NCBI GenBank assembly: GCA_003164035.1
Contig: PLRS01000045.1
Location: 62,001-126,000, forward strand
DNA: 64,000 bases
Direction of reading: 5' to 3'
Source: Bryobacterales bacterium
Lineage (GTDB): Bacteria; Acidobacteriota; Terriglobia; Bryobacterales; Bryobacteraceae
Positions 45,047 through 64,000 of this stretch are shown piece by piece; the first letter of the stretch is position 1; each line of letters opens with the position of its first letter. A model generated the notes under the pieces. It was not told the DNA's origin, made no database searches, and was given only the letters and a program-made list of their open reading frames with translations. Both the position numbers and the translations under genes were made by a program.

Positions 45047-46374
45047 AATCACTAGTGTCCGGCTATAAGTCGAACAAACTCAATTGGTTGGCGGAGGCGC
45101 CCAGATCGTTCGCGAAGTCGGACGCCTGAAGTGCCCGTAAGATGGGCGTTTTCTCGAAAAGCGGCACGCTCAAAATCTGTAAAATCTGGTAGAGGCTCGC
45201 CTCCAGCCCCAGGCGCTTGCGAACGATGGCTACCAGGACATAGACTGACACTGCGATCCAGATCTGGGTCTTTACCGCGTTCTCACTGGTACCGTAGAAG
45301 GCCTTGATGCGCAGGTGCTGCTTGATCCACTTGAAGAATAATTCCACCTGCCAACGGCACTTGTAGATCTGCGCGATGATCAGTGCCGGTAGAGTGAAGT
45401 TGTTGGTGAGAAGCTTGAATCGCTTCCTGGTTTCCACATCGAGGTAGCTCACGCGGCGCAACGCCTCCGGGTACGCTTTCGCCGAATCGATGGCGGTCAG
45501 AATGGCGGTGTGATTGGAGCGAACGCCGGTGGCCTTGTCCACGGCATGGGAGTAGCGACGCTGCAGCAGGACGTTGGATTTCGTGCGCACGACGAAGCGA
45601 AGAAGGCGGAACTGAGCGCGAACCTGTAAAGACGCTCGAAATCGACGTAGCCCCTGTCCATGACGTAAAACGCCCCAGCCTCCGGAAATATCTCGTCGAG
45701 GATATTGACGTCATGCACCTTGCCGTCCGTGATGCGGATAAACGTGGGGATGTTGCCGTGCAGGTCCAGAAGAGTGTGCATCTTGACGGCGGCTTTGTGC
45801 CGGCGGAACTTGGCCCACGGGAACAACGCCAGGCACAGATCGATGGTGGTCGAGTCCAGCGCGTACAAACTCTGGTCCAGATCCACGCCGATGGGATCGG
45901 CGGCATACAGCGGTCGCGCCATGCGGATGAGCACCTGTGCGAAGTCGGCGTAGATGCGCCAGTCGTGGGCGTCATTGGCGTCGGCCAATGTGGAGCGTGA
46001 CACTCGGCCGTGGAAGCCCATGTGATAGAGCTTGCCTCCCAGAGAGCGCAAGCATGCTTCTATGTCGCGAAGACCATCCCGATAAGTGAGTTGGGCAAAG
46101 GCCATCGACAGATACTGATCCCAGCAAGAGAAGCCTCGCGGTCGCACATCGCCGCCGTAACGCGCCACGCAACGGCGAAACTCGCGGTCCGGCAGGAAGC
46201 CCAGCAGTTGAGAGAATACGGTTCGACCTTGGTTCACGCACCATTGTGGCCCGCTCAGGAGCCCGCTTTGGGGCTGTCGCCGTTCAAATCGCGGCAATGC
46301 AAAATCTCGCGCAACTCTCAGAACCAGAGGGGCTTGCCGTCGGGCAGGCGGGTGTTAGCCGGACAGTAGTGATT
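45047..46374 (-). mobile_element. IS4-type insertion sequence
   Basis: The element is about 1.33 kb. Its ends are inverted repeats: AATCACTAGTGTCCGGCTA (45047-45065) at the left and the complement of 46356-46374 (AATCACTACTGTCCGGCTA) at the right, one mismatch. It carries a frameshifted transposase. It interrupts the integrase remnant on its left and ends 20 bp before the partial tRNA on its right. No clean target duplication is visible. Confidence 0.75.
45063..46297 (-). pseudogene. IS4-type transposase with N-terminal DUF4372-like domain, frameshifted
   Basis: The 5' frame (46297 to about 45610) has the DUF4372-like start VFSQLLGFLPDREFRRCVARYGGD, then FSCWDQYLSMAFAQLTYR and the DDE region YALDSTTIDLCLALFPWAKFR and FYVMDRGYVDFERL. 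The 3' frame (45590-45063) has FTLPALIIAQIYKCRWQVELFFKWIKQ with the catalytic Glu. The two are joined by a 5-base insertion: TTCTTCGCTTCGTCG here, TTCTTCGTCG in the fragment at 33962. Removing it restores FFVVRTKSNV. Programmed frameshifting is unlikely because a 5-base insertion is needed. Confidence 0.8.
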
Positions 46375-46393: not shown

Positions 46394-46443
46394 TGGTCGG
46401 GGCGAGTGGATTCGAACCACCGACCTCCTGGTCCCGAACCAGG
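46394..46443 (-). other. Partial tRNA-Pro(CGG) 3' half, likely att scar
   Basis: The minus strand reads the anticodon arm CCTGG-TTCGGGA-CCAGG (anticodon CGG), variable loop, T arm GGTGGTTCGAATCCACT and 3' acceptor strand ending CGCCCCGACCA. The D arm and 5' acceptor strand are absent: sequence 5' of the anticodon stem is unrelated. Such 3' tRNA halves are left when an element integrates at a tRNA gene. In the usual geometry, the minus orientation places the element on the right of this site and the intact tRNA at its far end, outside the window. Confidence 0.85.
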
Positions 46444-46628
46444 AGACAGCCATTTTGCCTGGTTTTGCGCCGGTATGCTGATCTTCCATATAGTCCCAGT
46501 TCAGCTTGTGTCTTCAAAGAGTTGCGCGCCGCTGGCTTTGCATGCGTATGCGCTCAGTTGCAGACTTTGGTTGCACGAAAAGGGCAAGAAAAGGGCAAGG
46601 TTTGCGGGGCAGCGAAACTCGTTCCAGG

Positions 46629-47204
46629 TCATCGCTCCGATCCTCCTGGTCTCTGCAGGCCTATCGTCTTGAAAAAACTGACGAAGCCGGGTGCGTTGAT
46701 ACTCAACCTATCGAGCACGTACTCCACAGTTTGGTTGATCGACGTAGCTTGCCGCTCAAGCGTCTCCACAACAAACTTGGGGTCGAGGTCATACAGGTTG
46801 CGGAGGAACGTACTAGGCCCCATTACCGCGATCGAATAGGGCTCCAGCGCTGTTCTGGGGAAATCCTTCAGGTTATGGGTGACGATGACTTCCGCATTGC
46901 ACCGGGCGGCGGCGGCCAGGACATGCCGATCCTTGGGATGGTTTGTCATGACCGGAATGAGATCCTCGTGGCCTTCCACCCACGCTTCCGGGAAGTGGCG
47001 CCGGATTTCACTCTCTCTGTAGGCGACTTGCTCATCCGTCAACCCGAAGTTCTCCGCGAGGCTCCGGTTCACTTCGCTCATGATTTGATCGGTCCACTTT
47101 GGCAGGTACAGTTTTCGCGCTCCGGCAAGACGCAGCAGAGTATCCGCCAAAGGCATCGGGATAAGGACGCAGGCGTCCAGAACGACCTTGACGCCTGCTC
47201 TCAC
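46629..47204 (-). CDS. PIN-domain protein (probable toxin)
   Basis: 191 residues; GTG start at 47204 with AGGG upstream. The PIN-like core shows the first acidic residue in VVLDACVLIP, acidic residues in the middle (Asp/Glu in FPEAWVEGHEDL) and PKDRHVLAAAARCNAEVIVTHNLKDFP near 90-115, which carries later conserved Asp residues. PIN toxins are Mg-dependent RNases. It follows the helix-turn-helix gene by 9 bp, the order antitoxin then toxin. The C-terminal 70 residues are an extra helical part seen in the PIN_3-type group. Confidence 0.8.
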   Translation of the reverse strand: MRAGVKVVLDACVLIPMPLADTLLRLAGARKLYLPKWTDQIMSEVNRSLAENFGLTDEQVAYRESEIRRHFPEAWVEGHEDLIPVMTNHPKDRHVLAAAARCNAEVIVTHNLKDFPRTALEPYSIAVMGPSTFLRNLYDLDPKFVVETLERQATSINQTVEYVLDRLSINAPGFVSFFKTIGLQRPGGSER

Positions 47205-47213
47205 CCGACCCTC

Positions 47214-47678
47214 TCACTCATCACTGCCGCCTTCCGGCATTACGTTGCGGTCGTACAGCCCAGCTTCAAAAGCTTGACGGGAGAGACCGTCGAGAGCCGC
47301 CTGACGTTCCTCGTCGCGCTTGCGGGCGAATTCAAGAACGTCTCGTAGATAAACGCGACGCTGATTCCCAACCCTGTGGTGGGCCATTGCGCCGGTCTCG
47401 AGCAACTTGATAAAGAACGGCCGGGACATGCCTAACAGGTCCGCCGCACGCTGTGTGGTAACAAGTTTATTGTCCGGCAGCAGCGTCACTGACTTGCCTT
47501 CTGCCATGAGTCCGACGACCTTCCTGAGAACTTCGTATACCGTCGGAGGGACGACGAGCCGTTCTCCGGACGCACTGACCAACGCTGGAGGACCCAGGTC
47601 GAGCATCCTTTCAAGATCGCGAACCTGCACCTGCTCAGTTGCTGGCAGGGTAATCGGCTCTCGGGCTGCTATCCTCAT
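47214..47678 (-). CDS. Helix-turn-helix antitoxin (excisionase-type) for the PIN protein
   Basis: 154 residues from ATG 47676-47678; the frame opens to 47738 but that part only translates the 9-bp repeat. A MerR/excisionase-type DNA-binding segment sits at about 70-115 (LVTTQRAADLLGMSRPFFIKLLE, then HHRVGNQRRVYLRDVLEF). The N-terminal 65 residues (ERMLDLGPPALV, VYEVLRKVVGLMAEGK) are typical of PIN partners. It probably represses the pair and binds the toxin. It starts 4 bp after the methyltransferase stop, so it may be read through from the defence operon. Confidence 0.8.
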   Translation of the reverse strand: MRIAAREPITLPATEQVQVRDLERMLDLGPPALVSASGERLVVPPTVYEVLRKVVGLMAEGKSVTLLPDNKLVTTQRAADLLGMSRPFFIKLLETGAMAHHRVGNQRRVYLRDVLEFARKRDEERQAALDGLSRQAFEAGLYDRNVMPEGGSDE

Positions 47679-47695
47679 GACATCAGAATACCACA

Positions 47696-47731
47696 TACTC
47701 GCAATACTCGCAATACTCGCAATAGTCGAAA
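47696..47731. repeat. 9-bp tandem repeat at the methyltransferase 3' end
   Basis: TACTCGCAA occurs three times perfectly (47696-47722), followed by the degenerate unit TAGTCGAAA. On the minus strand it encodes the YCE repeats near the C-terminus of the methyltransferase and lies just upstream of the antitoxin ATG. Unit number changes would keep the reading frame. Confidence 0.85.
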
Positions 47732-50493
47732 TTCTCAATCGTTGGCAAGCTCAACGCTGCAGGGTCCATCTTCTCGGCGTCAGAAAGAGGCGGTAGGGCG
47801 ATCGGCAAATGCTCCCGAACACTTTCAAACGTGCCCGGGCGGTGATCAAATGCGTGCACCATCTTCGCTTCGTAAAGGGGATAGTACACTGGTCCGCCTG
47901 CTTTCACGAATCGGTTGCCAGAAAGCCTATATCCTTCGGCCTCCAACGGCTCGCGCGTCCTGAAGAGATGGGAGTCGGTGGACATATTGAACAGGCCCTG
48001 CTTAAAAGTGATTCCCCAAGTGTTGCCCGAGTCTGACTCCTCCATCAGGACCGGAAACGTCCGGTAGATTCTCAGCGCAAGTTGGGCGTCTGCGAGTGTC
48101 CGGAACACCGGACACGTGCGGGTATTGGGGTTGACCTGCTGCAAATCACCTGCGGTGAGGCTGAACCTTCTCCGAGTATCAGACAGTTGGTCATAGTGCC
48201 GGGCAAAAAACATGAACTCTGGAGAGATACCGACCGCAGGTGATCCGGAAAGGGTAAGCAAGCAGAACCTGAAGGCGTGATGCACCGCCGGAAATATGAA
48301 CGCTTCATTCTCAAACCCAATCAACGAAACCAGACGGTGATCAGCTACGATCCACTCAAAGAAGCGCTTATTGCTGTCGTCGGTAGCTATTCCCGTGGGC
48401 AAAACCGCCCCAACCCGCCCACCTTTCCCGACCAGGCTTGTGAATGACTCGCCAAACAAGGATGAGGAATTACCGCGCCCCCCCGAGGTAAGGGGATAGC
48501 GACCAGCTTCACGCAGGTACTTCCTCAGGGCGTCCGTGTCGTGCATCACCTGCGTGTAATCACGCCAGAGAATAGGATTGGTCCGCGGGAGACTCTGGAT
48601 CATTCGCTTGCGCGCCGCTGCGTTGGGCGCATTGGCGATGGCAAGATCTTTGGCGGCAAAGAACTGCTGCTCCTCCAATTGGAGCATCTCCCAGGGCGGA
48701 TTGCACAAGAGTACATCAAAGCCTCCCCGGGCGAACACTTCGGGAAACTCCAGAGGCCAGTGAAAGAACCCGAGCCGGTCCGCTTCCACGTTTGCGGAAG
48801 CCAGCAGTTGCACGTCCGGTTGGCCGCCTTCCAACGCGGCTCGGACTGCCTCCGTCGTCGAGATGCCGTGTGCGACATTGGCCTCGGTGAGATCGCTGAA
48901 AAAGGCGTACGTCCAAAAATCGGCTGCACTTTTGTCCTTGCTATACCCGCTACCGGAGTGGAACTGATCAAACAATGCTCGCTTCTGGCGGATAACCTCG
49001 GGCGAATCGTCAGGGAGGTCTGTCAGATTCCGGCGGGCCGCGGCCATGGCGGCGACATCCGCCACCGGCGTGAACGCAAACGCCTGCTCCCGACTGAGAC
49101 GCTCCCGAGCCAGCTTGTTGTGCTTCTTCGCGTCCTTGGCCACTTCGCGATCGTCGCCGGTGACGGGTTTGAATGCATCATCCGGAATTCCCTTGTCCAG
49201 CGCTGCGAGGTCCAGCACGCCGACCAGGGAATCGCCACACAGAATTCGGTGATCGAGGAAACTTAGCGGTTTGCCGGCCGCATGGCTTTCCAGCCAGAGC
49301 GCCACACGGCACAGTTCCACTGCGAGCGGATTCTTATCCACCCCGTAAATGCAGTGAGCAATGGTGTCGCGTAGTGCCGTGCGGTACTGTGCGGGGCTGG
49401 GCTCGTCTTCCCCGCCACGGATTTTGGCCAGTTCCCGAGCGAGTCGTCGCGCCGCGGCGAGAAGGAAATGGCCGCTCCCGCATGCCGGATCACACACCGT
49501 GATCTCCAGCAGCTTGTGCGCCTTTTCTTCTGCGGTCCGGCCCTGCTTGAGGCGGTCCTCGAGAACTGGCACCAGTGCACTCTTCACCAGTTCGTCCACC
49601 AGTTCCGGGGGCGTGTAATAGGAGCCGGTCGTCTTCCGCTCGGTGCCGGCCACTAGTCGAAACGAAACCTTGCCATTCTCGCTTCCAAAGATCGGCTGCA
49701 GATCCAGCAGACTCTCGTAGACGCTGCCCAATTCCTCCACGTCCAGCGCCGCGTAGTTGATGTGACGGGGTGGCGAACTTGGTTGCTCGTGATAGGTGGA
49801 CAAGCACCAGAGAGCATCCAGAAAGGCACGATTGGTTATTACCGCGAAATTCAGATCGGCTGTCCGGTTGAGGTCAAACAGGTCCCCATTGAGGGGCGGC
49901 ACATCCAGCACTTGGCCATATTGCTCACTGTGGAACAGGCGGAAGGTAGATTGCAGACCCGTCCACAGGTCGGTGTGGTTGTTGCGGGCCAGCCTGCGCT
50001 CGCAGAGGGATCGTAGCCGGGCGATGCTGTAGTACTCCCGATACACCGAATTTGGCGAGAGCAGATTGCGCTCTTCGGTGACCATCAGGAACAGCAGTCG
50101 GTAGATGAGCCGCAGGATCTCCTGGTAAAGCCTATTGGCGGTGACGGTCCCGCTCTCCACACTCTGCAACAGGGGATCGTTTGCGGGACGGCTTAGCAAC
50201 GCGTTCCCCAGCAGGCCAATGGCGTTTTCCACTCCCTCGCGCAACTTGTCGCGGACGCGCCCGCCCTGCTCAATGGTGTGCTGATAGTATTGCTCCAGCA
50301 GGCAGGACTTGGAATCGGCATCCCCGTGCGGTAGGCGGCTTCTCTGGATCAGCCTGTAGAGGAGCGCGAAGTCGGCGAAACGCTCGCCAGCAAACATCGC
50401 CTTCAGGTCAAACTCCAGGAACGCCTGCCGCCGGAGAAGCTGCGAATCTCGCAACGCGCGCAGCACGTATCCGTTGGTGACGATGCCCCAACC

Positions 50494-51617
50494 TAGTGTT
50501 TAATTGCGTAAAGTGACGATTGTATTTTGAAGCTGGCTGCCTTTAACCTCACGCTTCCTCCCGCGGAACGGCTTGGCGTGCTCATTGTGTTTTTTGAAGA
50601 AAGCTTCAATGGCTTCACGCAACTGATCCTTCGTCTTGAAACTTCCTCCGTTTAACGTTTTGCGTTGCAGCAGGCTGAACACGATTTCGATCTGATTGAG
50701 CCAACTCGCCGAGGTGGGCGTGAAATGAAACTGGACCCGCCCCTCGAACTTCGCTAGCCAATCGTCGTTTCCTTTGTGAGGGGAGTAGTTATCAAGGATG
50801 ACGTGTATCTCCTTGCCCTGAGGCTGGTCTGCCAGCACGTCATCAAGGAAGCTGCGAAAATCCTCCCGCTTCTTATACTCCGTAAACTTCGTCTTCACCT
50901 GGCCAGTGCCAACTTCAAGGGCGGCAAACAGATTCAGCGTCCCATGGCGTTTGTATGTGCTCTTCAGCCCGCGCACTACTTTGCCGCTGTCGGTCTCCAC
51001 ATAACCCGAGGCCCGCTCGATTGCCTGTATGCTCGGTTTTTCGTCCACGCTCAGCACCAAGGCGTTCACCGGCGGGTTTAGATATAACCCCACCACGTCA
51101 GCGGCCTTGGGAGCAAACTCTTTGTCGGTACTCACGCACCAACTCCGCCGCCTTTGCAGGTAGATTCCTTCACGGCGCAAGACGCGCCAGACGGCGTGCA
51201 CGCTGGCGTCGAGTCTCTCCGCCACCGCCGGTCCGTCCCAGTGGGACATACCGGGCGGCGGTGGCTCCTCCAGCGTGGTCAGCACCCGCTTGCGAAACGC
51301 CGCATCATACGTGACCGGCTTACCCGGTCGCGGTTGATCACGTAATCCTCGCAATCCCCACAGGGCGAAGCGCTGGCGCCATTTGGAAACGGTGGCGAGC
51401 GAGACGCTCAGTTCCCGAGCGACCTGCTGAATCTCCTTGCCCTCCAGACAAGCCAGAATGATTCGTGCACGCTCCACAGTGTACGCCTTCTCTGTTCGGC
51501 TCTTTGCGAGGGTCACCAAACTTGCCTTGTCTTCGACGGAACATTCCAGTTCGGGCGCGTGTCTGGGCATCTCCCAAACATTTTAATACAAATATGTATT
51601 AACGCAATTAAGCACTA
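50494..51617 (-). mobile_element. IS630-family insertion in the methyltransferase gene
   Basis: The element (50496-51615, 1120 bp) has 14-bp ends GTGTTTAATTGCGT and, on the other strand at the right, GTGCTTAATTGCGT. It is flanked by TA on both sides (50494-50495 and 51616-51617) inside CTAG, the normal IS630 TA target duplication. The transposase is intact and the ends are well matched, so the insertion is probably recent. Confidence 0.9.
50500..51570 (-). CDS. IS630-family transposase, intact
   Basis: 356 residues. The N-terminal helix-turn-helix pair is IQQVARELSVSLATVSKWRQRF and GPAVAERLDASVHAVWRVLRREG. The DDE triad is in VLSVDEKPSIQ, VILDNYSPH and NQIEIVFSLLQRK. Full family length, no frameshift. 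It moves the element into TA sites by cut and paste. Transcribed in the same direction as the interrupted gene. Confidence 0.95.
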   Translation of the reverse strand: MPRHAPELECSVEDKASLVTLAKSRTEKAYTVERARIILACLEGKEIQQVARELSVSLATVSKWRQRFALWGLRGLRDQPRPGKPVTYDAAFRKRVLTTLEEPPPPGMSHWDGPAVAERLDASVHAVWRVLRREGIYLQRRRSWCVSTDKEFAPKAADVVGLYLNPPVNALVLSVDEKPSIQAIERASGYVETDSGKVVRGLKSTYKRHGTLNLFAALEVGTGQVKTKFTEYKKREDFRSFLDDVLADQPQGKEIHVILDNYSPHKGNDDWLAKFEGRVQFHFTPTSASWLNQIEIVFSLLQRKTLNGGSFKTKDQLREAIEAFFKKHNEHAKPFRGRKREVKGSQLQNTIVTLRN

Positions 51618-52088
51618 GCTCGGTCCGGTTGAGGAATTCCTGCAACAGCGAGTGCGGCGCCAGGCGGGGTCGGCCCGATTCTGCACGGCGGTCCAGGGAC
51701 TGCCCCACACCGACGACGTGTACTGGGGGCGCGTTCGAATGCCGGTCAGCGCGATGAGAGATTGCGTACTTGACGCCCGCCACCTCCTCACCGTGTTCCT
51801 GGTAGGCGAGATCATAGCCGAGCAGCCCGAATAGAGGGCACACCCATTGGTTCCGGGTGAATGTGGTGCCCAGGTCATCTTCCGTAAGCAGTTCCGCTTT
51901 CCGGTTGAAGCCGGTCCAGAAGCCGCGCGCGTCCGACCAGACGGCCGAGATCTGGTCCAGAAGCGTGGTTCTGTCAGGGAGACCGAAGTCCCGTGCCGAC
52001 TGGCCCACAGCGCTACCCTCGGCGATGGAGTCCACTAACTCGGAAGCGAGAAATCCGCCTTCCAGGCGGAGCGCCGGATACTTGGCGC

Positions 52089-54929
52089 TCATGCCTGCAC
52101 ACCCTTCGGCCTTGGAAGCAATATGAGAAAACCGAGCAGGTCGGGCGGATAGTGGCGGACAACGCTCATACCCCGGCGCGCCAGACGAATGCTGGCCCGC
52201 ACTCGGCGGTGCGCCGCTTCCAAGGTTTCCGCTCGTTTGATGACTAGCGGGTCCATGGCGGTACGGATGGACCCCCAATGGTTTAGAAGTTCTGTGGCGA
52301 CCTCAGTCCGTACAGCGGGCTGCACGTTCGCTTCTGGAGCTGCTGTGCGAAGCAGATGAAGCGCGACCGGAGTATCCAGCCATGAGGGCTCGGTGTCGGG
52401 CGAACCCGTGAATCCAAAGCACTGGACTTCTTCGGCCAACAGATCACGTTGCGCCGGCGTAACGATGGTGTATCGCAACCGGCACATCAGCAGGAACGTT
52501 CGGCGGTCCACAGCGGTTGTCCGGATCACGCCGCAGCGCGTGGCAGCGGCTTCCTGCTCGCCAGCCAACGCTTGTTCCATCAGATATTGTGCCGTGTTTT
52601 GCAGGAAGGGGTGGTTGCGGTCGATGTATTCGGCGCCGTCGGGCGGCATGCTATTGAGTGACACACGCCATTCGGGACTGGCCGGAGCGGTCAACTTGAG
52701 CGGTTCAGGGAGATGGTCAAAACCGGAGAGGATTAGCGTATCGTCTAGGCCCGTCCGCAGTTTCAACTGCAGACGCTGTGCCGCATTCTGCAGGAACCGC
52801 TGCGCCGATTCGGAGTCCGCCAACACGGTGTCAGTTTCTTGCAGCTCTCGCTCCACTTCCTCGGGATTGATCGCGTGCTGGGCGAAGCGCGTCCGCGAGA
52901 CCTTCTCGGCCTGGGCGGCACGGTCCCACTTCACATGAACGTCGTTGACCTCGTCAATCGCGAACAGGTTCATCTGGAGGTCTGGCTCGGCGAACAGGCG
53001 CTTGACCACGGCTTGAATGACGGTCTCGCTTTCTACCGGAACCGGCACGCGAACGCCAAGTGTCGTGAAGATCTGCCGTGCCTTGCGAAGGAGCACGTCT
53101 AGTACGGCGCCATCTACGGGGTTGTCGCGACCATAGAACAGCACGGCCTTCACGACCTTCGCCTTCTGGCCGGAACGGTCCACGCGGCCTTCTCGTTGCT
53201 CCAGGCGATTGGGATTCCAAGGAAGATCGTAGTGAATGACTGCGTCAAAGAGCGTTTGCAGGTTGATCCCCTCGCTCAGGCAGTCAGTGGCAACAAGGAC
53301 CCTGTACGGATGGCGGAGGGGATCAATGCTGTCAATCAACTCGCGGCGTTCATCCTCGGCCATAGCGCCAGTGATGGAAAGAATGCGCAGGTTCGGAAAC
53401 GAACCCCCAAGGCGTCGTTGCAGGTCGTCGCGCACGTAGTCGCTGGTAGCGATGTAACGGCACCAGATTATCGGCCGGTGGCCTTCGCTGAGCATCTGGC
53501 GGACAAGTTCGGCGCAATCGCGAGTCTTGGTGTCCTTATCTGTGGCGGCGAGCGCTGCGGCCTCCCGCGCAAATCCTCGAAGCCGCTGCCTGTCGGCATC
53601 GCCCATCTCAGACTCGCCCTCTTCCAGGACGTGTCGCGGCTGGACGTCTAAGGTGTCGTCATCGGTGGGTTCAAAGATGTATGGCGAGTAGTCGGCATCA
53701 TCCTGCTCGGCTTCCGCTACCCCGTGTTTCAATCTCTTGCCAATAGCTGCAACGGCGGCTGCCGGACTGGACATCACGCAGCGGAGTAGCGCGAGCGCCG
53801 TCCAGTACCGGATCCGTTGCTTCCATCCGGTCAGCGTCTCGCCGGACTGGACCAGTTCGCGGCTGAATTCGTACACGCCCTCAAACAGCCGTTTGTAGTC
53901 GGCGGAAAGCGAATAGTACCTTTCGTCAGGATCACGTTTCGGGAACGGGGTCGTCTCCCCGGCCCACCGGACTTCAACGTCGGCGCGTCGTCGCTGGACG
54001 AAGTGGCGGGCTAGGCCTTTCCGTTCGGTTTCATTCAAGCGGGACAGATCATAGTTGCGGAATCCCGGATCAAGCAGACCGAGCAGCGACTGGAATGGCG
54101 TTTCAACCCCGCTGTGCGGCGTCGCTGTGAGAAGAATCAAGTGGCGGTCCGGATTGACGGCGACGTCGCGCAACAATTCGTACCGTTGCTGCTGGTTGCG
54201 GCTACCAGTGGCCCGGGCCGTGGCTCCGTGGGCCTCGTCAACGATGACAAAACCGGGTGCGTGCTGGAGGAAGTTGGCCCGGTGCGCTTCACCCTTTGCG
54301 TAGTCGATGCTGACAATGATGTGCGGATAGTAGCCGAAAATGCTGTGGTCCGCGGAAGGCAGGTTTCGTTCCAACTGGCTGACTGTGCCAGAGCGAATGA
54401 CCGCGGCTTCCAGACGGAACTTGTCCCACAGTTCCTTCTGCCATTGCGAGCACAGGTACGGTGGGCACAGCACGCACAGGCGCGTAATCTCGCCTCGGTC
54501 CAACATCTCGCGAGCTATCAGGAGGCCCTCAACAGTCTTACCGATGCCGACATCATCCGCAATCAACATGCGAACCGGATCGAGGCGCAAGGCCATCAGC
54601 ATGGGAACAAACTGATATGGGCGGGGCCGGACACTGATGTGTCCCAGCGAGCGGAACGGACCGGCTCCGTCACGCAACGTGAGCCGCGCAGCGTTGAATA
54701 GCAACTCCGCGCTGACGTGATCACCGGACTGCGCGACCTCAGGCAGTGGGAAGGTCGCCGGCGTGATCCGATCCAGGTCGAGGGTATGGAGTCGGTGGTG
54801 GATGCCAATGCGCTCCTGGTCACTACCGGCCAGCGGTCTCAGCATGTACACGCTGTCATCGTCAGACGGAAGAACAACCCATTCCCTCCCTCGGCACTTA
54901 ACGATGGAGCCCACGGAAATCGCGCTCAT
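52089..54929 (-). CDS. SNF2-type helicase (DrmD-like)
   Basis: 946 residues, intact. A short N-terminal domain (SVGSIVKCRGREWVVLP) precedes the helicase core: Walker A in LIADDVGIGKTVEGLL, DEAH box VIVDEAHG, motif III LLTATPHSG, and the C-terminal lobe VLVATDCLSEGINLQ, YDLPWNPNRLEQREGRVDR. The last 350 residues are family-specific. The layout fits HepA/RapA-like helicases and DrmD of DISARM class 1. It begins 4 bp after the large helicase and overlaps the methyltransferase start by 4 nt, so all three were co-translated. It is the only large gene of the operon without a visible lesion. Confidence 0.85.
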   Translation of the reverse strand: MSAISVGSIVKCRGREWVVLPSDDDSVYMLRPLAGSDQERIGIHHRLHTLDLDRITPATFPLPEVAQSGDHVSAELLFNAARLTLRDGAGPFRSLGHISVRPRPYQFVPMLMALRLDPVRMLIADDVGIGKTVEGLLIAREMLDRGEITRLCVLCPPYLCSQWQKELWDKFRLEAAVIRSGTVSQLERNLPSADHSIFGYYPHIIVSIDYAKGEAHRANFLQHAPGFVIVDEAHGATARATGSRNQQQRYELLRDVAVNPDRHLILLTATPHSGVETPFQSLLGLLDPGFRNYDLSRLNETERKGLARHFVQRRRADVEVRWAGETTPFPKRDPDERYYSLSADYKRLFEGVYEFSRELVQSGETLTGWKQRIRYWTALALLRCVMSSPAAAVAAIGKRLKHGVAEAEQDDADYSPYIFEPTDDDTLDVQPRHVLEEGESEMGDADRQRLRGFAREAAALAATDKDTKTRDCAELVRQMLSEGHRPIIWCRYIATSDYVRDDLQRRLGGSFPNLRILSITGAMAEDERRELIDSIDPLRHPYRVLVATDCLSEGINLQTLFDAVIHYDLPWNPNRLEQREGRVDRSGQKAKVVKAVLFYGRDNPVDGAVLDVLLRKARQIFTTLGVRVPVPVESETVIQAVVKRLFAEPDLQMNLFAIDEVNDVHVKWDRAAQAEKVSRTRFAQHAINPEEVERELQETDTVLADSESAQRFLQNAAQRLQLKLRTGLDDTLILSGFDHLPEPLKLTAPASPEWRVSLNSMPPDGAEYIDRNHPFLQNTAQYLMEQALAGEQEAAATRCGVIRTTAVDRRTFLLMCRLRYTIVTPAQRDLLAEEVQCFGFTGSPDTEPSWLDTPVALHLLRTAAPEANVQPAVRTEVATELLNHWGSIRTAMDPLVIKRAETLEAAHRRVRASIRLARRGMSVVRHYPPDLLGFLILLPRPKGVQA

Positions 54930-54932
54930 ACT

Positions 54933-57900
54933 CTACTTCTTCCCCAACCCGAAAACTTCGGGATGGAGGGCGATCTGCTCGGCCAGGTTGCTGTCATATC
55001 GAATCACGATCGCGCGGTAACCTTTTTCTCGCAACTCCCGGCGGAGTACGTCGTCCTTGGCCTTCTGCTCGAGGGTGTCGTGAACGCTACCATCGCAGTA
55101 GATGCAGGCATGACTGCCGGAATAATAGAAGTCGGGCACCGTGGGCGCATCCACCAGTGCCCTTTGTGCAGCGTCGGGCAGGTCACGCCGGTCCCGGTAA
55201 AGGTGAGCGATAAATTTACGTTCCAACTCCGACCGCGAATCGGTAAGGTTCTTCAGGTATTCATAGTGCGCATCGTAGTCGCGACCACCATGCCGGCGTG
55301 TAGCGCTGGCTTCAGTGAGATCGCGCAACAAATCCGTAACCATGTGCCGATTGAGGATCCGGTGGTCGCCCTGGTTGCTGTACGAGAGCACGCACTCGTA
55401 GCAAGCGGCGTGGCACTTCTCGTTCTGGTCCTCGAGGGTGTCCGGATCAAAATGCAAACGCGCCAGAGCAGCGGTGGCCACCGCAGCAAACAGATCCTCT
55501 TCCTCCACCAACCGGCGGAGAACGCCGACACCGCCCTCGGCAGCCTCCCAATAGAGGATGGCACGGCGGTCAGCGTCCCCGATGCGCTCCGACGCCAGTT
55601 CGGACTCTTCCACCTGGAAGAACTGTTCCATCCCTCGTTGCAGTGCGAATTGTAGTGTGGCGGTGGCCCGTTCGTCCTGCTGCGTCTCCGGTGGCGGGTA
55701 CACGATCAGCAGATTCTCGGTGTCGCTAACGAATAGGTGAACGTTGGCCAAATTGGCGGGATCATCCGGTTTTTCCGGATTGATTTCACCGTTTACCATG
55801 TTCAGGCAATAGCCATCGTCGTTTCGGCCCTTCCACCCGTGGTTGATCTTGTACATAGTGGCGGACGGCGCAAATACAGTTCGGAGGAGCGGTTGGCTTG
55901 GGTCCTTGCCGATGGTGGCTTCTACCGTCCGTACCCGCCCGTCACTAGCTGTCGCATACCGGAAGTGCGTGCTGACCTTGTATCCGCGACGGATGCGTTC
56001 TTCCTCGTCGCAGGTGATGCGCTCCCGGCGGATGGTCTTGGCATTCGGCATCTCCAGCAGGTGAACGTATTCGCTGCTGCTTCCATCCAGAACGGAGCGG
56101 CAGCAGCCGCACCGATCGTCCGTGTCGGCGTTGAAGTACCCGCAGATTCGGCAAGTTTTCGCCTTGGACTTGCGAGACGCGAGTCCCCCAGGCGGCGTGA
56201 AAAAGCGCTTCACCTGGAACTTAGAGCCCTCGTGATAAATGAAATTCTCCGGACCGAACTCGGTTAGGGCGATGAAGCGAGCCCGGCTGAGGAATTCGCC
56301 GTCTTCCCGAGGGATGTAGACGCGGATCGGCAAGCGCGGGAAGTTGTAACCGGGCAGAAATCCTTCGCTGGCCAGGTACCGGTAGGGGTAGAAATCGGAC
56401 TCCTGTCGAGTCGTGCTGACGTTTACCAGGAGGTTGCGCTGGCGCTTGGCCTCCTCAATTCTCTGGCGGGCCTCTCTCTGCGTCTTGTCATCCAGGGCGG
56501 AGGCCTCAACTTTTTGTGCTTCCAACAACTGCAACGTGGCCGCACGGAATAACTGGCGCCACCGCTCAAATGCAAGGTCAAATCGATCCGCGGCTCGGCG
56601 GATCGTGTCGGCCGTCCAGTCCGGCCTGTACCAATCGGCTTCCTTCACCTCCGGGCCGGAGAGATCCAGAATGTGGTTGGCCTCGGCGATGCAATCAGCC
56701 AGGCTCTGCTCGGAGAGCCTCACCTGCGATTTGACGTTCTCCCTGAGAGGATGGGTGTCTTGCTGAAGGTCCAGCAGTTCCTCTACGCTGCGATGGATAT
56801 GCAAGTTGACCTTGGAAAACCAGACGGCCTGAAGGTGCGCCCGGACCATGTCCTCGTTGGAAAGGTCAATCCGCGGCGGCCTCACCGAGCCCGCTACCAT
56901 GTCTTTTCGGCGCTGAAAAAAGTACTGGTCGTGCCCGCTGGATGCGGAGCAGTACGTGACAATCAGCGCGGGTTCGCCGCTGCGCCCGGCGCGGCCACTT
57001 CGTTGCGCATAGCTTGCTGGCGAGGGCGGGACGTTCCGCATGTGAACCAGTTGGAGATCCCGGATGTCAATACCCAACTCCATAGTGGGGCTGCAAAACA
57101 GGACCTTGAGATCTCCATTGCGGAATCGCTCTTCGCGCTTCTCGCGGTTCTCGTAACGAATCTGCGCCGTGTGTTCCAGTCCCTCCACGTCGCGAAGCGA
57201 CCGGGCACGGTCGCGGTACAGCTCGGAAAAGAATCCGTTCGCCGTCAGCTGCACCTGGCTGAAGATTGGACTCGGTGCCCGGCGGGAGTAGATCGGATCG
57301 GGAGGTGGAGGATTGCCGTCGCCCTTCTGCCAGACCAGTGCGGCGGATTCCACCTGCACGTATCGGGTGCCCTTTTCTGTCTCGCTTCGCAAGAGCCCCT
57401 GTTGCGTGAGGATGGCCACGAGCTTCGTAATAAAGGTGTCGTAGTCGCCCATCGCCGGAACCGTGCGGCGAAAATACCGTGCGATCAAACTGCGTGACCC
57501 GAGGCTGATCCCGTTAAGGTTGCCCTTTTGACCCGGCAGAAGGAGGTGCTCTGCACTGCGTAGCCGCTCCTCCGAATCATCAAATTGCCACCGTTCGTTG
57601 ATGACCTGGTTAACCCGCTGCCGCAATTGCTGCTGGTAGGTCTCGCGGAGACACTCGGCGTGGATCGCCAGCTTCTTTCGTGCGAAGTCCAGAAACGGCA
57701 TCAGGACGGCGAGCCGCTCTTCGGCATTTAGCGCCGCCATCGGCAGGAGATTCTGCCAGAGTTCATCGCGAAGACAGGCGCCCGCGAGTCCTTCGTACGT
57801 GATCTTGAGCAGCCCACACTGTTCCAGGTTGGGATGCACGATGCGCCAGGCCCGCCGCAGATCTTGGTAGATCCGGTACTGGATCAGGTCGCGGAACTCG

Positions 57901-59984
57901 CGGCATACACGTTCCGCCTGAGCCGATGTTGGATCCAGGCTGGTGTTCGCGGCGAAGTCGTTGACGTCCAGCGCCAACGCCACAGTGACCTTCTCTGCCA
58001 TGTCGTAGTGGCGCAACTCGCAATGTGTCTCGAGCGCTTTGAAGATCGCCGCCCGCAATAGTGAAACCTGTACGAAGTCGTTAAAGTGGCCGGCCTGGAG
58101 GGACGCGTCATGGCGGTTGTCTGTGAAGCTGAGAAGTTTGCGCGAACTGCCGGTGATGTTGGCCTTCTCCGCGTGATCCAGTTCGCTGATACTGAGCGTG
58201 GTGGTGGCCGAACTTCGGCCTTCGTTGGAAAGTCCCGTGAGCTTTCGGAAATCACGGTCGCGGAGCGAGTAGTATTCACCGCAATTCTGGCAAATCAGGA
58301 ACGGGCTCGTCTGGTAGAACACCTGGACCGAGCGTTCTGTTGGGTGGCCCACAATGCAGCCGTCAGCTTCGACGTGGAGCTCACGCGGAACGAGTGGGCG
58401 GTAGTTCCGCTTGACCTTGCCGTTGGGCTCTATCCATTCCGGCGGCAGATCGTCAACGGACCAGTCGAACGGCTCGGTCGGAGGGATCAGGGCATAGCCG
58501 CGTAAAGCGTGATTTTCGGAATCATCGGAGGAGCCATCCCAGGGCGCGAACTGTTGGCCGGCTTCATCGTACAAAACCCGGTAGTATTCCTGGCCGCAGA
58601 CGCGACAGAAGACGACCGGAAACAAGAGCCGCTTCCTGTCGGGCGACTCGCCGGGCTTCGCGTAGTATTGGCCGTCAAGCGTCAATTCACGCTGTGCCCG
58701 CGCCTCCAGGGTTGAGTACACCGGCCGCCCTTGCGAGATGAATTGGTGGAGCTTGAAAGCAAGCGCCGCGCCACCGTCGGGACTGCTCAACCGGCTTCCG
58801 GCCAGAAACGTCTCCTGCAGTCGCGACACACATTCGGGCAGGGGCACGTTTGTAGCATCAGTGAGTTTGGACGCCACCTCCGCGAGCGTCTGTGGCACCC
58901 GCCGCCGATAGGCCCCTTCGACATCTTTCTAGAGCCCAACCGCAGACTCAATCCATGCAGTAAGTGGGCTTGCCAGCAATTCCGCGGCAGTCTGTGGGAC
59001 CGGCTGATTCAACGCCAGACTCAAATCGGAACGGGTCGGCGGTGGTTCGGTGGTCGTGATCGGCCGTAGGGTTTCCTCAATTATATTGCTCGGCGCGATG
59101 TCGGATCCAAACAGCCGCGTCGCGAAATCGGCCACGGCCCGGCGTCGCTCCGAAGCCGGCGCCGTACGGTCTGCAACCATGGTGGCACTGGTGCCGATGT
59201 GGCGGACGCGCGGATTCCCGCAGCGCTCCTTGAGGCGGCGAAGCAGCATGGCTACATCGGCGCCCTGGCGACCACGGTACATATGAAGCTCGTCCAGAAC
59301 TAGGAACTGGAGATTGGAGTGTTCCTTGTCGACGAATGCCGATTCCTGGGGACGAAGCAGCATCATTTCCAACATCATGAAGTTTGTCAGCAGAATATGC
59401 GGGCGAGCTTCCTGAATACGGATCTTGTCTTCCTCGTTCTCCTGGCCGGTGTACTTTTCGAATCGGATCGGCATGGACCGGCCGGTGCGATCCTCATAAC
59501 CTCTTTTGAGCGCGTTCAGGGCTTCATATTGGCTGTTTACCAGGGCATTCATCGGATAGATGACGATGGCTCAGACCCGCTTGTCAACGTGGTTACCCCG
59601 GAGGATCGTGTCGCAGATCGGGATGAAATACGTCAGGCTCTTGCCCGATCCGGTCCCGCTAGTGACGACGTACGATTGCTTGGTTGCGGCGATCTGCACC
59701 GCTTCCATTTGGTGCTGGTAAAGCCGATATGGCTTGCCTCCGCGGTCGCGGAAGATTTCCGCCGTTTTGGGCGTGACAAGTCCGGCGGCGGCGAGCGAGT
59801 CCATATCGTCGCCGGGCTGGTAGGCCGGGTTCAATTGCAGCAGAGCATCCGGCCAGAAAACGGCTTCGTCTACGAGTTGCTTTTCCACGTAGTCTCGAAT
59901 CCGGTCGTCCGAGATCGACAGGAAACTCTGGACGTACCGTTGGTAGTCCCGGACTACGTTCCGGTGCAGGTCAAAGATGCTCAT
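54933..59984 (-). pseudogene. DEAD-box helicase-DUF1998 protein with nuclease-like tail, two in-frame stops
   Basis: The frame covers 1684 codons, interrupted only by TGA at 59571-59573 (codon 138) and TAG at 58929-58931 (codon 352); there is no indel, and similarity continues on both sides (HVDKRV-stop-AIVIYPMNALVNSQ; AVGL-stop-KDVEGAYRRRVP). Segment 1 has Walker A TSGTGSGKSLTY. Segment 2 has LVLDELHMYRGRQGADV and GTSATM. Segment 3 has CSPTMELGIDIRDL and SGRAGRSGEP, a Cys4 ribbon (CRICGYF, CGCC), the DUF1998 box CYECVLSYSNQGDHRI, and a Vsr/DUF559-like end (FYYSGSHACIYCDG, AKDDVLRRELREKGYRAIVIRYD). Relatives are DrmA/DrmB, DruE and MrfA. Without readthrough it is dead. Confidence 0.85.
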
Positions 59985-60168: not shown

Positions 60169-60723
60169 TCACGGATACGCGCTGGGCGCGCTCGCCGACG
60201 GGTAGCAGTCGATGAAGTTCGCGAAGAAATCGGGTTGTTCGCTTTGCGGGATGCAGCAACTCGCGGTGAACCACATGAACGGCGTCCGCTCTGAGCACAA
60301 AGGCCCAACGGCGGTAGACCGTAGGCTCACGTCGATGACGCCGCACGCTGTCTCGAAATGGGCACGGGGGCGACGAAAAGCTGCTGGCATCGCTGATCGA
60401 AAATGCCTTCGCCACGGCCACCGCTGTTTGTCGCTGCCGCCCAGGGCAAGCGTCCCCCATGTGGCAATCGAGCGGGGATCTATTTGGAATTGGAGAGCCA
60501 TCTGTTGGAGAACGCCTCCGGCACTCCAAGGCGGCGCTGGATCGGCCTTTCTGGAATCCGCTGTTTGAGGGCTCTGTCCCGGCCACGACGCGACTTCGTA
60601 ACTATGTTCAAGACCGTAGATAACAGCGAGGAATTGCCGGGCTTGAGTTGCTGAAGATCTCCTGCTTGAGAATACAGGGTCGAGCCGTGCAGCCGTTTCT
60701 CGAAGCTGCAAATTGCCAGTCAC
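60169..60723 (-). CDS. Unknown protein of the defence operon
   Basis: 184 residues starting GTG at 60721-60723, which overlaps the upstream stop (GTGA), the main support for it. It reads FSSRRSSATQARQFLAVIYGLEHSYEV, shown here as two motifs FSSRRSSATQARQFL and YGLEHSYEV. Later parts are rich in Arg, Cys and Ser. I recognise no family; a phospholipase-D motif expected for DrmC is not seen. Other frames over the same stretch are open but less coupled. The 3' part may be degenerate. Confidence 0.4.
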   Translation of the reverse strand: MTGNLQLRETAARLDPVFSSRRSSATQARQFLAVIYGLEHSYEVASWPGQSPQTADSRKADPAPPWSAGGVLQQMALQFQIDPRSIATWGTLALGGSDKQRWPWRRHFRSAMPAAFRRPRAHFETACGVIDVSLRSTAVGPLCSERTPFMWFTASCCIPQSEQPDFFANFIDCYPSASAPSAYP

Positions 60724-61910
60724 TGGAGTTCAATCTCAAACAGCGAACCATCAGGCGAGATACTCCGCACCACGGCGCGATGATCGCCTCCTTCGGACTC
60801 AACGTGGAACCCCTCCCCCCGTCCGATACCAATTTCGCCCTGAGACTCCAGCGGTGCCGGCCTGGTCCCCTGCCGGATTTGTTCGTAGATCTTCCCATCA
60901 AGCCCCCGAAACATACGCAACAAACGGCCATCGGGCATCTCTGCCTGCCACTGGGAGCCGAGATAGGTGCCAAGGCGAGTTTCGCGTGGGATGAGGTGCC
61001 GCTCTTCGAATGAGAGCTCGTGCCCAGCCTCCAAGTGTTCTCGTACCAGTTTTGAAGCGGCAGCGCGGTCGCCGATGTACGTAAGCCGTTTGGCGTCTGC
61101 AAAGATTCCGATTTCTTCCGGCTCCCACCTGCTCAACTTGCGGACCTCAACCGGATTTTCTTCGTCTTCTTCGGGATCGACGATAAGAAGCGTAACGGCT
61201 TGCTGTAGCCATGCCGCAATAACGAGCCGCGTTACGCCCGGGGCTCCTGCAATATCGACCGCGAGAACCTGTTCGGTGCCGCGTTGAAGTTGGCTGACCG
61301 CTGTGGCCCTTGCACTCTGAGTTCCCTTGCACTCGACGATGTAGAACTGGCCCGGCTGTGGGCCTCTGAAGATATAGTCCGGCAAAGATCTGCGAGAATT
61401 TCCGCGTAGGCGCAATTGCCCGCCGCGTTTTGCCACAAAGACATCCACTGGATCGGTGGCCCTCGCACACACGGCCATGAAATAAGCAGCGAATCCGACA
61501 CCGAACTCGTCTGAGAGGAGCGTCTTCTGATGGAAATCGAGGTCCTTTACGGTCGAGTTCAGACGCAGGGACCGCAGGCGGCGGCCGTCGAAATTGGGCA
61601 AGAAGGCCCAAAGATACCGAATCTCGGCCCAGGTCGACGATAGATCGATTAATTCCGTGACAGGCGGCGTGGTGATGCGTCCCAGTGCGTGCAGCATGTC
61701 CACCGGGCGAACCATCATTGTTTCGGCTTGGCCGGCTGTGGGCCATGGGGTTGGCGGCTTGGCGCGCAGGGGCCGCTTCCCGGAGCGTCTCTTTTCGATA
61801 GCTCGCCGTTGCTGAACCGAACGGACGTCGGCGCAAAGGTCGGTTGAGGACTCAACACGTAGTTGATATTGGCGAGTTAGGGCTTGCTGCCATTGAGTGA
61901 CAGTGGGCAT
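60720..61910 (-). CDS. PD-(D/E)XK-like nuclease-family protein
   Basis: 396 residues, first gene of the minus-strand defence operon. The central part has the PD-(D/E)XK signature: Asp178 in SLPDYIF and Glu193-x-Lys195 in YIVECKGTQ, with an upstream helix LLSDEFGVGFAAYF. The rest is a helical N-terminal domain (LIDLSSTWAEIRYLWAFLPNF) and a C-terminal beta-rich domain. The fold suits DNA cleavage or anti-phage sensing. It overlaps the next gene by 3 nt, so translation is coupled. No Walker motif. A restriction role in concert with the helicases is inferred. Confidence 0.65.
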   Translation of the reverse strand: MPTVTQWQQALTRQYQLRVESSTDLCADVRSVQQRRAIEKRRSGKRPLRAKPPTPWPTAGQAETMMVRPVDMLHALGRITTPPVTELIDLSSTWAEIRYLWAFLPNFDGRRLRSLRLNSTVKDLDFHQKTLLSDEFGVGFAAYFMAVCARATDPVDVFVAKRGGQLRLRGNSRRSLPDYIFRGPQPGQFYIVECKGTQSARATAVSQLQRGTEQVLAVDIAGAPGVTRLVIAAWLQQAVTLLIVDPEEDEENPVEVRKLSRWEPEEIGIFADAKRLTYIGDRAAASKLVREHLEAGHELSFEERHLIPRETRLGTYLGSQWQAEMPDGRLLRMFRGLDGKIYEQIRQGTRPAPLESQGEIGIGRGEGFHVESEGGDHRAVVRSISPDGSLFEIELQ

Positions 61911-62283
61911 GGAAATGGCTCAGGTGCGTCGGTGAGGTAGCTTGGAGCAATGCGCTTCTACCGCTCAAGGTTCCACACTACCGCCGTGAGGATTGAGTCG
62001 CAACGTCTCGAATGCCCCAGCAAGGTGTTTTACCGTAACCCTAGTAACGTCGCGCAACGCCGCTTGGGCGACTGCCGAGGTCGATCGGTCGTGGTTGGTG
62101 GCTCTGGTGACGGGCGCACCGCGTCCGGCTGACGACGTTGACGCGGTGCTGGCATCCACGGCCAAACCTCCTCTTTTCTATCCTGGCAGCAGGGTGGCAA
62201 CAGGACTCAGGGTCTTGGTCAGATAGCTCTGCGCGTCCGTGCGATCAAATACGCGGTAAACTGTTCAATCTGCTGGAGAGCGA
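61911..62283. other. Intergenic region between divergent genes
   Basis: It separates the start of the defence operon (minus) from the Lys-rich gene (plus). Short frames on both strands are unsupported. It presumably holds both promoters, but no motif is convincing; no sigma-54 match was noticed. Confidence 0.4.
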
Positions 62284-62781
62284 ATGCCGATCAAACTCAC
62301 GAACGAAGTCATCATTGCTGCCATTGAAGGTTTCGAGGCGCAAAAGGCCCGAATTGATGCAAAACTTTCTGAACTTCGGGGCCTCTTGACCGGGAGCGCC
62401 ATCGAGGCCGCCACCACGCCGGCGATCATCGCGCCCAAGCGCAAGAGATTCTCGGCGGCGGCTCGAAAGCGGATGAGGGAAGCTCAGCAGCGTCGATGGG
62501 CCAACATCAAGAGTGATTCTGAACAGCTACCGCAAGCCACGCCTGAGTCCTCGAAGCCCAAGCGGAAGCTGTCAGCGGCTGGCAGAAAAGCAATCGTCGC
62601 TGCCACAAAGAAACGTTGGGCTCTCAAGCGAGCCGAAGCTGCGAAGGGGAGACCAATAGCAGCGAAGAAAGTGGCCTCAGCCCGGGAAAGTGCGGCTGTG
62701 AAGAAGGTGCCCACCAAGGTAGTGGTGAGAGCTGCAACCAAAAAAGGCGCAGTGGAGAAGTCGGCCGCACCTCTTACATAG
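62284..62781 (+). CDS. Lys/Ala-rich nucleic-acid-binding-like protein
   Basis: 165 residues. The first 40 form a helix (IEGFEAQKARIDAKLSELRG). Then come two repeats of a basic motif, FSAAARKRMREAQQRRWA and LSAAGRKAIVAATKKRWA, as in NUMOD3-like segments, followed by a Lys/Ala/Val tail resembling histone H1-like proteins. It probably binds DNA without sequence preference. Similar short proteins are common in Acidobacteriota. Ribosome-binding site GGAGAGCG precedes the ATG. The host promoter is not clear. Confidence 0.7.
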   Translation: MPIKLTNEVIIAAIEGFEAQKARIDAKLSELRGLLTGSAIEAATTPAIIAPKRKRFSAAARKRMREAQQRRWANIKSDSEQLPQATPESSKPKRKLSAAGRKAIVAATKKRWALKRAEAAKGRPIAAKKVASARESAAVKKVPTKVVVRAATKKGAVEKSAAPLT

Positions 62782-63490
62782 ACGGGCCGATCACGCGCCC
62801 GCCGCTGAATAGCGTGGGAACAGAATTCCTTCCAATGTCCAACCGGCAACGCTGCAACGTTGGGGGAGTCAGGTTGCGAACCGACACAATCCGAGGATAT
62901 AGATCCAGGGATATTTTTCGGGTTGCCTACGCGAGCGGTTACGTGTGCACAGGTTCCATAGATCGCCGCCGCGGACGCGCAGAAGACTGTCGATATAGTC
63001 CTAAAGGTCTTCATCCCGATTTCGCCTCAAGGCATGAGGCGGAGAGACTAGGATCGGCCAGAGGGGCGCCCGGCGATGAGATTTCTTCCGTCCCCACGTT
63101 GACAGCGTTGCGCAACCAGCGGAAGACAAGACGATAGCGTTTGAGCAGATAGGTCTAGGAACATTTTTCGGGTTGCATAGTTCACAAGGACAGACCTGTT
63201 AGTTTCTGCCGACCAACCGATGGCCGCCCTCCGTTAGGTCCACGGAGATTTTTCGGGATTCCGCCGATGCATCAGCGATCGCCGGGGGCAGGAGGGCCTG
63301 AGTACACATTCCGACCAACAGCCCGTCCATTGCAGATTTCTGAGAGGATGTGAAATTGCCCGCCGGCGAATCGATGAGGCACGGGTGGTGACATTCGGTC
63401 ACTACTGAAAACCTTGAAAGTCGATGTTCCCCTCAAGAGGTTTTTGAGGCCACCGTTCGCTACGCTCGACTTGCGGGGCTCCTTTGACGC
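62782..63490. other. Degenerate region with three copies of a 27-bp repeat
   Basis: No intact gene is supported. The stretch contains imperfect direct repeats at 62900-62926, 63150-63176 and 63235-63261 (shared core ATTTTTCGGG, listed separately). On the minus strand the three copies read in a common pattern (for example SRKISVDL and TRKISLDL), so they may be pieces of a decayed gene family or mobile element. Confidence 0.4.
62900..63261. repeat. 27-bp imperfect direct repeat, three copies
   Basis: Copies at 62900-62926, 63150-63176 and 63235-63261 all have the pattern TAGRTCYA followed by ATTTTTCGGG and end in TTGC or ATTC, without gaps. Spacing is irregular (223 and 58 bp between copies), so it is not a CRISPR array. 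The nature is unknown. Confidence 0.6.
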
Positions 63491-63937
63491 TCAGTCCGAT
63501 AACGGGGTTGATTCGCCGTTCCGAAGTTTGGGTTCGCCCCACTGGGGTAAAGGATCACACTGCGCCAGACGAAACAAGAACTCGCCGCCGGTGTTTTCGT
63601 CGAACAGCATGTGAATGAAGCGGTACGTTCGATCGACGACGTCAATCACCAGCCGCTTGATTTAGTCGTCGTACAGGCGCGACACCTCCGGACAGGGGAT
63701 CGGACCATACGGGCTGCTGACAGTAACGGCCGAATTATCTCCAGTCGCCGACGGGGGCGAGGTGCCGGCGTGAAAATCCTCAAGCGTCGAATGGCGGAAG
63801 CACTGCAGGACCAGATACTTCGCCAATCGCTGCTGCAGCACGGGATCCGTCATGAATGCGCGGATTTCCTCATCAGCGCTCAAATCCAGTCCTCCAAGAC
63901 CTCCCACTATCACACGAACCAGCAATTGGTGAAACAC
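63491..63937 (-). pseudogene. Conserved hypothetical gene interrupted by an in-frame TAA
   Basis: 148 sense and stop codons in one minus frame. The 5' part (to TAA at 63662-63664) reads FMTDPVLQQRLAKYLVLQ and LEDFHAGT; after the TAA it continues IKRLVIDVVDRTYRFIHMLFD and LAQCDPLPQWGEPKL. The parts fit one short protein, familiar from integrated elements in soil bacteria, where the position of the stop would be a polar codon. No frameshift. Function unknown. Confidence 0.6.
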
Positions 63938-64000
63938 CCGCCAAGCAGGCGATAGAGGGGATTTGGCAAGGAAGCGAAGATTAGGTCGGCACTGTTCCCC

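What the first reader, a model, noticed from the sequence alone, without database searches (positions are those of the whole stretch)
46394..46443. tRNA-Pro 3' half marks the edge of an integrated island
The 50-nt fragment from the anticodon stem to CCA, without the 5' half, is what site-specific integration into a tRNA gene leaves behind. Polarity places the island on the right, so it contains the toxin-antitoxin pair and the defence operon. The adjacent integrase is decayed, suggesting the island is now fixed.
Basis: partly seen in the sequence, partly recalled or inferred. Interest (0 to 1): 0.65.

Follow-up and report, generated by a model that had tools for sequence, protein, structure and literature searches.

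The report
Island inserted beside proline tRNA gene
A 17.7 kb piece of foreign DNA carrying a probable toxin-antitoxin pair and a broken anti-phage system was inserted at a proline tRNA gene of an Acidobacteria-type bacterium; this is a well-known kind of insertion, but here both integration sites survive while the enzyme that made the insertion is gone.

Summary
The fragment is real: window 46394-46443 is identical, 50 of 50 bases, to the 3' half of a complete minus-strand tRNA-Pro(CGG) just outside the window, at window-equivalent 64108-64185. (1) A double 11-bp repeat lies just inside both ends and nowhere else in the 8.0 Mb assembly at up to 2 mismatches; its distance from the core is conserved in four other left ends although the DNA between has diverged. 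It looks like integrase arm-type sites. (2) A relative in another genus has the same left end with an intact 422-aa tyrosine recombinase beside the HTH-PIN pair. In this island that gene is gone; no integrase match is found on the contig. The defence genes match the published ARMADA type I set and are themselves broken. Verdict: a tRNA-borne island reduced to a CIME-like remnant; a new member of a known kind.

The parts
46394..46443 (-). tRNA-Pro(CGG) 3' half, the displaced att core (left end of island). The complete gene at the right end lies outside the window at C17:126108-126185 (window-equivalent 64108-64185, minus strand)
   Evidence: 50/50 identity to the complete gene; complete gene by ARAGORN
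46572..46601 (+). left arm-type repeat (inferred role), contains AAAAGGGCAAG twice; 128 bp inside the core. Its partner at the right end lies just outside the window at C17:126014-126043 (window-equivalent 64014-64043)
   Evidence: 29 of 30 bases equal between the two copies; the 21-bp double unit, <=2 mismatches, occurs 2 times in the 8.0 Mb assembly; spacing conserved
46629..47204 (-). PIN-domain protein, 191 aa (probable toxin)
   Evidence: PF13470 25.7 bits, just under its cut-off 27; NF046100 98.1 bits, under its cut-off 170; 79-81% identical in two other genera
47214..47738 (-). excisionase-family HTH protein, 174 aa (probable antitoxin)
   Evidence: PF12728 31.3 bits; TIGR01764 38.5 bits, cut-off 28.8; 88-89% identical in two other genera
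47683..50466 (-). C-terminal part of PglX/DrmMI-like N6-adenine methyltransferase
   Evidence: PF07669 and DrmMI models; continuous with the N part in G063
50500..51570 (-). transposase (DDE_3; IS630 type by recall) inserted in the methyltransferase gene
   Evidence: PF13358 85.7 bits; inverted ends next to TA on both sides, read by eye
51583..52278 (-). ORF holding the N-terminal part of the methyltransferase
   Evidence: 54% identical over 235 columns to the N part of G063's methyltransferase; no Pfam or PADLOC match of its own
52089..54929 (-). SNF2/BrxHII-like helicase, 946 aa
   Evidence: PADLOC: DpdE 607.9, DrmD 284.2, BrxHI/HII 188.3 bits
54933..59984 (-). YprA/DruE-like helicase with MZB (DUF1998) domain, broken by two in-frame stops
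   Evidence: ORFs 54933-58898, 58929-59552, 59571-59984 in one frame; stops at codons 138 and 352 of 1684; no stops in the same stretch of five relatives
60720..61910 (-). 396-aa ORF without family match
   Evidence: no match in Pfam, PADLOC, NCBIfam

Best explanation
A tyrosine-recombinase element carrying its own copy of the tRNA-Pro 3' half integrated at the anticodon arm of the tRNA-Pro(CGG) gene. Its copy completed the tRNA on the right (window-equivalent 64108-64185) and displaced the original 3' half to the left (46394-46443). Shown: the tRNA/fragment pair in the right orientation, paired 11-bp repeats inside both ends, ends of homology with elements in another genus at the tRNA sequences, and an intact relative with integrase, excisionase-like HTH and HTH-PIN pair at the 3'-half end. 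Inferred: crossover in the anticodon loop, binding of the repeats by the integrase N-terminal domain, and that the island lost integrase and excisionase and is now immobile unless a related integrase acts in trans. The PIN/HTH pair probably selects for keeping the island (inferred from the families). The defence cargo (ARMADA type I gene set) is probably inactive, having two broken genes.
For: Complete gene on the right and 50/50 identity. Double repeat found 2 times in the own assembly, 0 in the reversed-pattern control. Of 12 places in the scan of 121 family genomes, 7 lie about 65 or about 128 bp from a tRNA-Pro 3' core (2 own, 4 in G099, 1 in G021). The first unit starts at base 185 from the core start in 4 of 5 left ends and at 186 in the fifth, with mean pairwise identity 0.95 at the repeat against 0.43-0.64 in the middle of the spacer. 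Own-to-G099 homology starts at 46394, the first base of the core, and runs to 47743 (86%); on the right it covers 64011-64186 (85%) and stops at the tRNA; flanks were in the query on both sides. G214:C141 has core, arm, PIN, HTH, 422-aa integrase and a 105-aa HTH_17 protein in a row. C17 holds none of the assembly's 16 PF00589 matches.
Against: No integrase in the island, so the enzyme is inferred from relatives. No empty site was found: none of the matches listed (61 genomes, capped list) other than the own locus spans both the tRNA and its DUF72 neighbour, and in 6 of 16 other loci tested the tRNA-Pro neighbour is a 442-aa gene that in this genome lies on another contig. GC content does not separate the island from the 46 kb to its left. 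Of the 12 repeat places, three have no tRNA-Pro core in the stretch fetched (G069, G081, G088), one is 3.1 kb from its tRNA-Pro (G110) and one has only a weak 31-base match beside it (G033); the reversed control pattern gave 4 matches in the same scan. The integrase of the intact relative is rare: 2 of 237 family genomes at E <= 1e-60, one of them the query itself.
Confidence: 0.9

Rival explanations
1. A variant of the best explanation: the 17.7 kb stretch comes from two elements inserted in tandem at the same tRNA-Pro and later fused by a deletion that removed the integrase; the left end belongs to one, the right end and cargo to another.
For: Homology with G099's left end stops at 47743, 5 bp above the start of the called HTH ORF; G099 has four such ends on four contigs; the left flank 0-46 kb is also low in GC.
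Against: No internal tRNA-Pro core above chance and no third double repeat between the two ends, though a fusing deletion could have removed them.
Confidence: 0.25
2. The fragment is a stray tRNA pseudogene or chance match, unrelated to integration.
For: Short tRNA-like fragments occur elsewhere in the genome.
Against: 50/50 identity, same orientation, boundary at the anticodon arm, double repeats at both ends only, and homology to foreign elements that starts at base 46394.
Confidence: 0.02
3. The foreign DNA bounded by the fragment lies on the left (0-46 kb), and the right-hand stretch is chromosomal.
For: The left 46 kb has the same GC as the island and carries glycosyltransferases and transposases.
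Against: A 3' half lies at the end of the island away from the complete gene, which is on the right; no other tRNA-Pro match in the assembly by BLAST of the 3' half and none above chance in window -12000 to 46000.
Confidence: 0.03

Closest known systems
tRNA-gene genomic islands of the Islander type (PMC4383910; passages read)
   Same: complete tRNA gene plus 3' fragment, right configuration and orientation, length within 2-200 kb, anticodon-centred site
   Different: no integrase gene; Islander's integrase filter would reject this candidate
CIME, cis-mobilizable element (PMC5704250; passages read)
   Same: attL and attR kept, integration genes lost
   Different: no conjugation genes were seen among the ORFs I scanned here or in G214, so an ICE/IME parent is not shown; mobilisation untested
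tRNA-borne mobile elements carrying ARMADA (PMC12458937, preprint; abstract and passages read)
   Same: ARMADA-type genes on an element at a tRNA gene
   Different: the predicted active ones described there encode integrases and excisionases; this one has no integrase match and its ARMADA genes are broken
ICEMlSym R7A attP (PMC11963761; passages read)
   Same: a 283-bp attP with repeated 10-bp integrase arm motifs around a core; the attP inferred here would be about 300 bp
   Different: five motifs there; here two tandem pairs of an 11-bp unit of another sequence, role inferred

Membership tests
tRNA-gene genomic island (Islander definition) | complete tRNA gene and cognate 3' fragment, same orientation, fragment downstream, 2-200 kb apart | tested here: met
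   window-equivalent 64108-64185 and 46394-46443, both minus strand, 17,714 bases core to core
tRNA-gene genomic island (Islander definition) | integrase gene in the interval | tested here: not met
   PF00589: 16 matches in the assembly, none on C17; no relic by tblastn better than E 0.27
CIME (cis-mobilizable element) | attL and attR kept | tested here: met
   cores and double repeats at both ends; function not tested
CIME (cis-mobilizable element) | integration genes lost | tested here: met
   present in G214, no match here
CIME (cis-mobilizable element) | derived from an ICE or IME; can be moved in cis | not testable with these tools
   no transfer genes among the ORFs scanned; no experiment possible
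ARMADA type I | YprA-like helicase, then BrxHII-like helicase, then PglX-like methyltransferase in one operon | tested here: met
   this order from 59984 down to 47683 on the minus strand; same order in 5 of 8 related loci fetched. Model names are DruE, DpdE/DrmD/BrxH, DrmMI; the match to ARMADA is by description
ARMADA type I | YprA homologue falls in the ARMADA I clade with BrxA-like insert | not tested
   no tree or fold was made
ARMADA type I | intact genes | tested here: not met
   two in-frame stops in the YprA-like gene and a transposase gene splitting the methyltransferase

The most novel reading that the evidence does not exclude
The excisionase-family HTH antitoxin also acts as the recombination directionality factor at these att sites, so that toxin control and excision are one switch; islands that lose integrase keep the pair and its DNA sites as an addiction lock.
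Probability: 0.08. Interest if true: 0.6.

Novelty: new member of a known kind. Interest (0 to 1): 0.3.

Why it matters
It gives exact ends, att architecture and an intact relative for a family of tRNA-Pro(CGG) elements found here in several genera of one Acidobacteria-type family, with different genes inside: ARMADA genes here, type I restriction-modification genes behind G099's tRNA, ferritin-like and weakly MerT-like genes in G214. It also shows that an island which lost its integrase, and which an integrase-based island finder would reject, can be recovered by its paired arm repeats.

Tried and rejected
Rfam search of the window: 0 matches. PF00589 across the own assembly: nothing on C17. 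Six-frame reading of 61901-64000 by eye for integrase motifs: none recognised. tblastn of the relative's integrase and HTH_17 protein on C17:50001-134000: nothing better than E 0.27. Empty site: not found. Older tRNA-Pro fragment in window -12000 to 46000: none above chance. Is the HTH-PIN pair generally an integrase partner? 94 of 237 family genomes (own included) have a PIN match at E <= 1e-20, but of the 30 loci returned only 2 (G099, G214) show a tyrosine-recombinase motif in flanks of at most 1.5 kb by my own regular expressions; this speaks against the novel case. A helper integrase of the G214 type: 2 of 237 family genomes at E <= 1e-60 (G214 itself and G031 at 43%), not the own genome.

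Full report
Observation. The window is G000:C17:62001-126000 of an 8.0 Mb assembly in 169 contigs. The 50 bases at 46394-46443 equal the 3' 50 bases of a complete tRNA-Pro(CGG) on the minus strand at L006:6108-6185, window-equivalent 64108-64185, which begins 108 bases past the window end. ARAGORN finds no tRNA in the window nor in C17:50001-66000. Core to core the distance is 17,714 bases.

Ends. A motif of 27 exact bases (29 of 30 over the longer alignment), holding two units AAAAGGGCAAG (the last base of the second unit differs on the right), lies at 46572-46601 and window-equivalent 64014-64043, in the same orientation, inside the two cores. The 21-base double unit, with up to 2 mismatches, occurs 2 times in the assembly, both here; the reversed control pattern 0 times. 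In 121 family genomes (own included) 8 have a match with up to 3 mismatches, 12 places in all; the reversed control pattern gives 4 matches, one each in 4 other genomes. Of the 12 places 7 lie about 65 or about 128 bp from a tRNA-Pro 3' core (own 2, G099 4, G021 1); G110's is 3.1 kb from its tRNA-Pro; G033's has only a weak 31-base match beside it; G069, G081 and G088 have none in the stretch fetched. So up to five of the twelve may be chance. G015 has a right-type end with one unit. In five left ends (own, two of G099, G214, G021) the first unit starts 185, 185, 185, 185 and 186 (G021) bases from the core start; mean pairwise identity is 0.95 there against 0.43-0.64 in the middle of the spacer. 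In four right ends (own, two of G099, G015) the unit nearest the core ends 64-66 bp before it, and the second unit is recognised in three of the four. I read these as integrase arm-type sites; that is inference.

Relatives. Own DNA matches G099:C65 (86%) from 46394 to 47743 and G099:C44 (85%) from 64011 to 64186, so homology starts and stops at the tRNA sequences. G214:C141 begins with a 47-base core, then arm, PIN, HTH, a 422-aa protein (PF00589 129.2 bits) and a 105-aa HTH_17 protein, all genes reading towards the core. G099:C65 keeps a C-terminal piece of that integrase (74% over 82 residues). The own island has neither: C17 has none of the assembly's 16 PF00589 matches and no relic by tblastn. 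G028:C40 has the core and the pair, but the pair is inverted. Genes inside differ: an MFS piece and type I restriction-modification genes behind G099's tRNA, ferritin-like and weakly MerT-like (21.2 bits, cut-off 32.9) genes in G214.

A repeated target. Eight relatives whose loci I fetched hold a 43-50-base tRNA-Pro 3' core match at 89-100% that ARAGORN does not call as a gene (G013, G015, G020, G021, G022, G028, G035, G060, chosen from the capped list).

Cargo here. The minus-strand operon encodes a YprA/DruE-like helicase with MZB domain, an SNF2 helicase (DpdE 607.9 bits, DrmD 284.2) and a DrmMI/PglX-like methyltransferase. A match to the SNF2 protein at E <= 1e-100 is found in 22 of 257 genomes of the order, own included. 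The same three genes in the same order occur in 5 of the 8 loci fetched; G104 shows two of them and G135 has pieces on two contigs; none of the 8 loci holds a tRNA gene. This is the gene set and order described as ARMADA type I (PMC12458937, preprint, abstract and passages); I made no tree. Here the YprA-like frame has stops at codons 138 and 352 of 1684, none in the same stretch of five relatives, and a transposase gene splits the methyltransferase, which is one open frame in G063. The system is probably inactive.

The 'decayed integrase'. Next to the fragment, 45063-45590 and 45497-46297 match the two halves of DDE_Tnp_1, with DUF4372, in different frames: a broken transposase (IS4 type by recall), outside the island.

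Limits. No empty site was found. The chromosomal setting of tRNA-Pro differs between genera: in G001, G020, G022, G036, G099 and G110 (6 of 16 other loci tested) it lies beside a 442-aa gene, with efp also seen in all but G036; here that gene is on contig C38, whose first 14 kb hold no tRNA, and the tRNA's neighbour is a DUF72 gene followed by two genes that are linked to it in G001 as well. GC does not separate island from left flank. A two-element origin cannot be excluded.

Known context. tRNA islands with the regenerated gene and displaced fragment marking the ends are well established; Islander counts 2083 islands with anticodon-centred and 1836 with T-stem-region sites, and its filter drops candidates without integrase (PMC4383910, passages). 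Elements that kept att sites but lost integration and transfer genes are called CIMEs (PMC5704250, passages). The likeness of the anticodon loop and stem to a tyrosine-recombinase core is described in PMC8371274 (passages). The listings of four searches on tRNA islands, CIMEs, Acidobacteria islands and arm-type sites (10-12 papers listed each) showed no title or abstract start on this element family, which is weak evidence of absence.

Noticed in passing
G000:C72:509-552 and 3322-3371 (L113): Two further tRNA 3'-end-like fragments (80-82% to tRNA-Pro) with a sub-cut-off integrase match at C72:1222-1389 between them: probably another tRNA-based island.
   Followed up: no
60720-61910 (-): 396-aa ORF near the head of the defence operon with no family match and no tblastn hit in 8 related loci.
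   Followed up: partly
62284-62781 (+): 165-aa lysine/alanine-rich ORF with no Pfam or NCBIfam match; looks histone H1-like by eye.
   Followed up: no
1-46000: The left flank is also low in GC, with glycosyltransferases, methyltransferases and broken transposases; possibly an older foreign region, but no tRNA-Pro fragment was found at its far end.
   Followed up: partly
62900-63260: A short motif like 'atttttcgggttgc' recurs about three times in a poorly coding stretch (seen by eye).
   Followed up: no
L066 (G099:C112) 8891-9031: A right-type end, arm plus 48-base core, without the tRNA 5' half: a possible secondary site or junction of another element.
   Followed up: no
G000:C38:9955-11274: The gene that flanks tRNA-Pro in several relatives lies here without a tRNA nearby, so the chromosome has been rearranged around tRNA-Pro.
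   Followed up: partly
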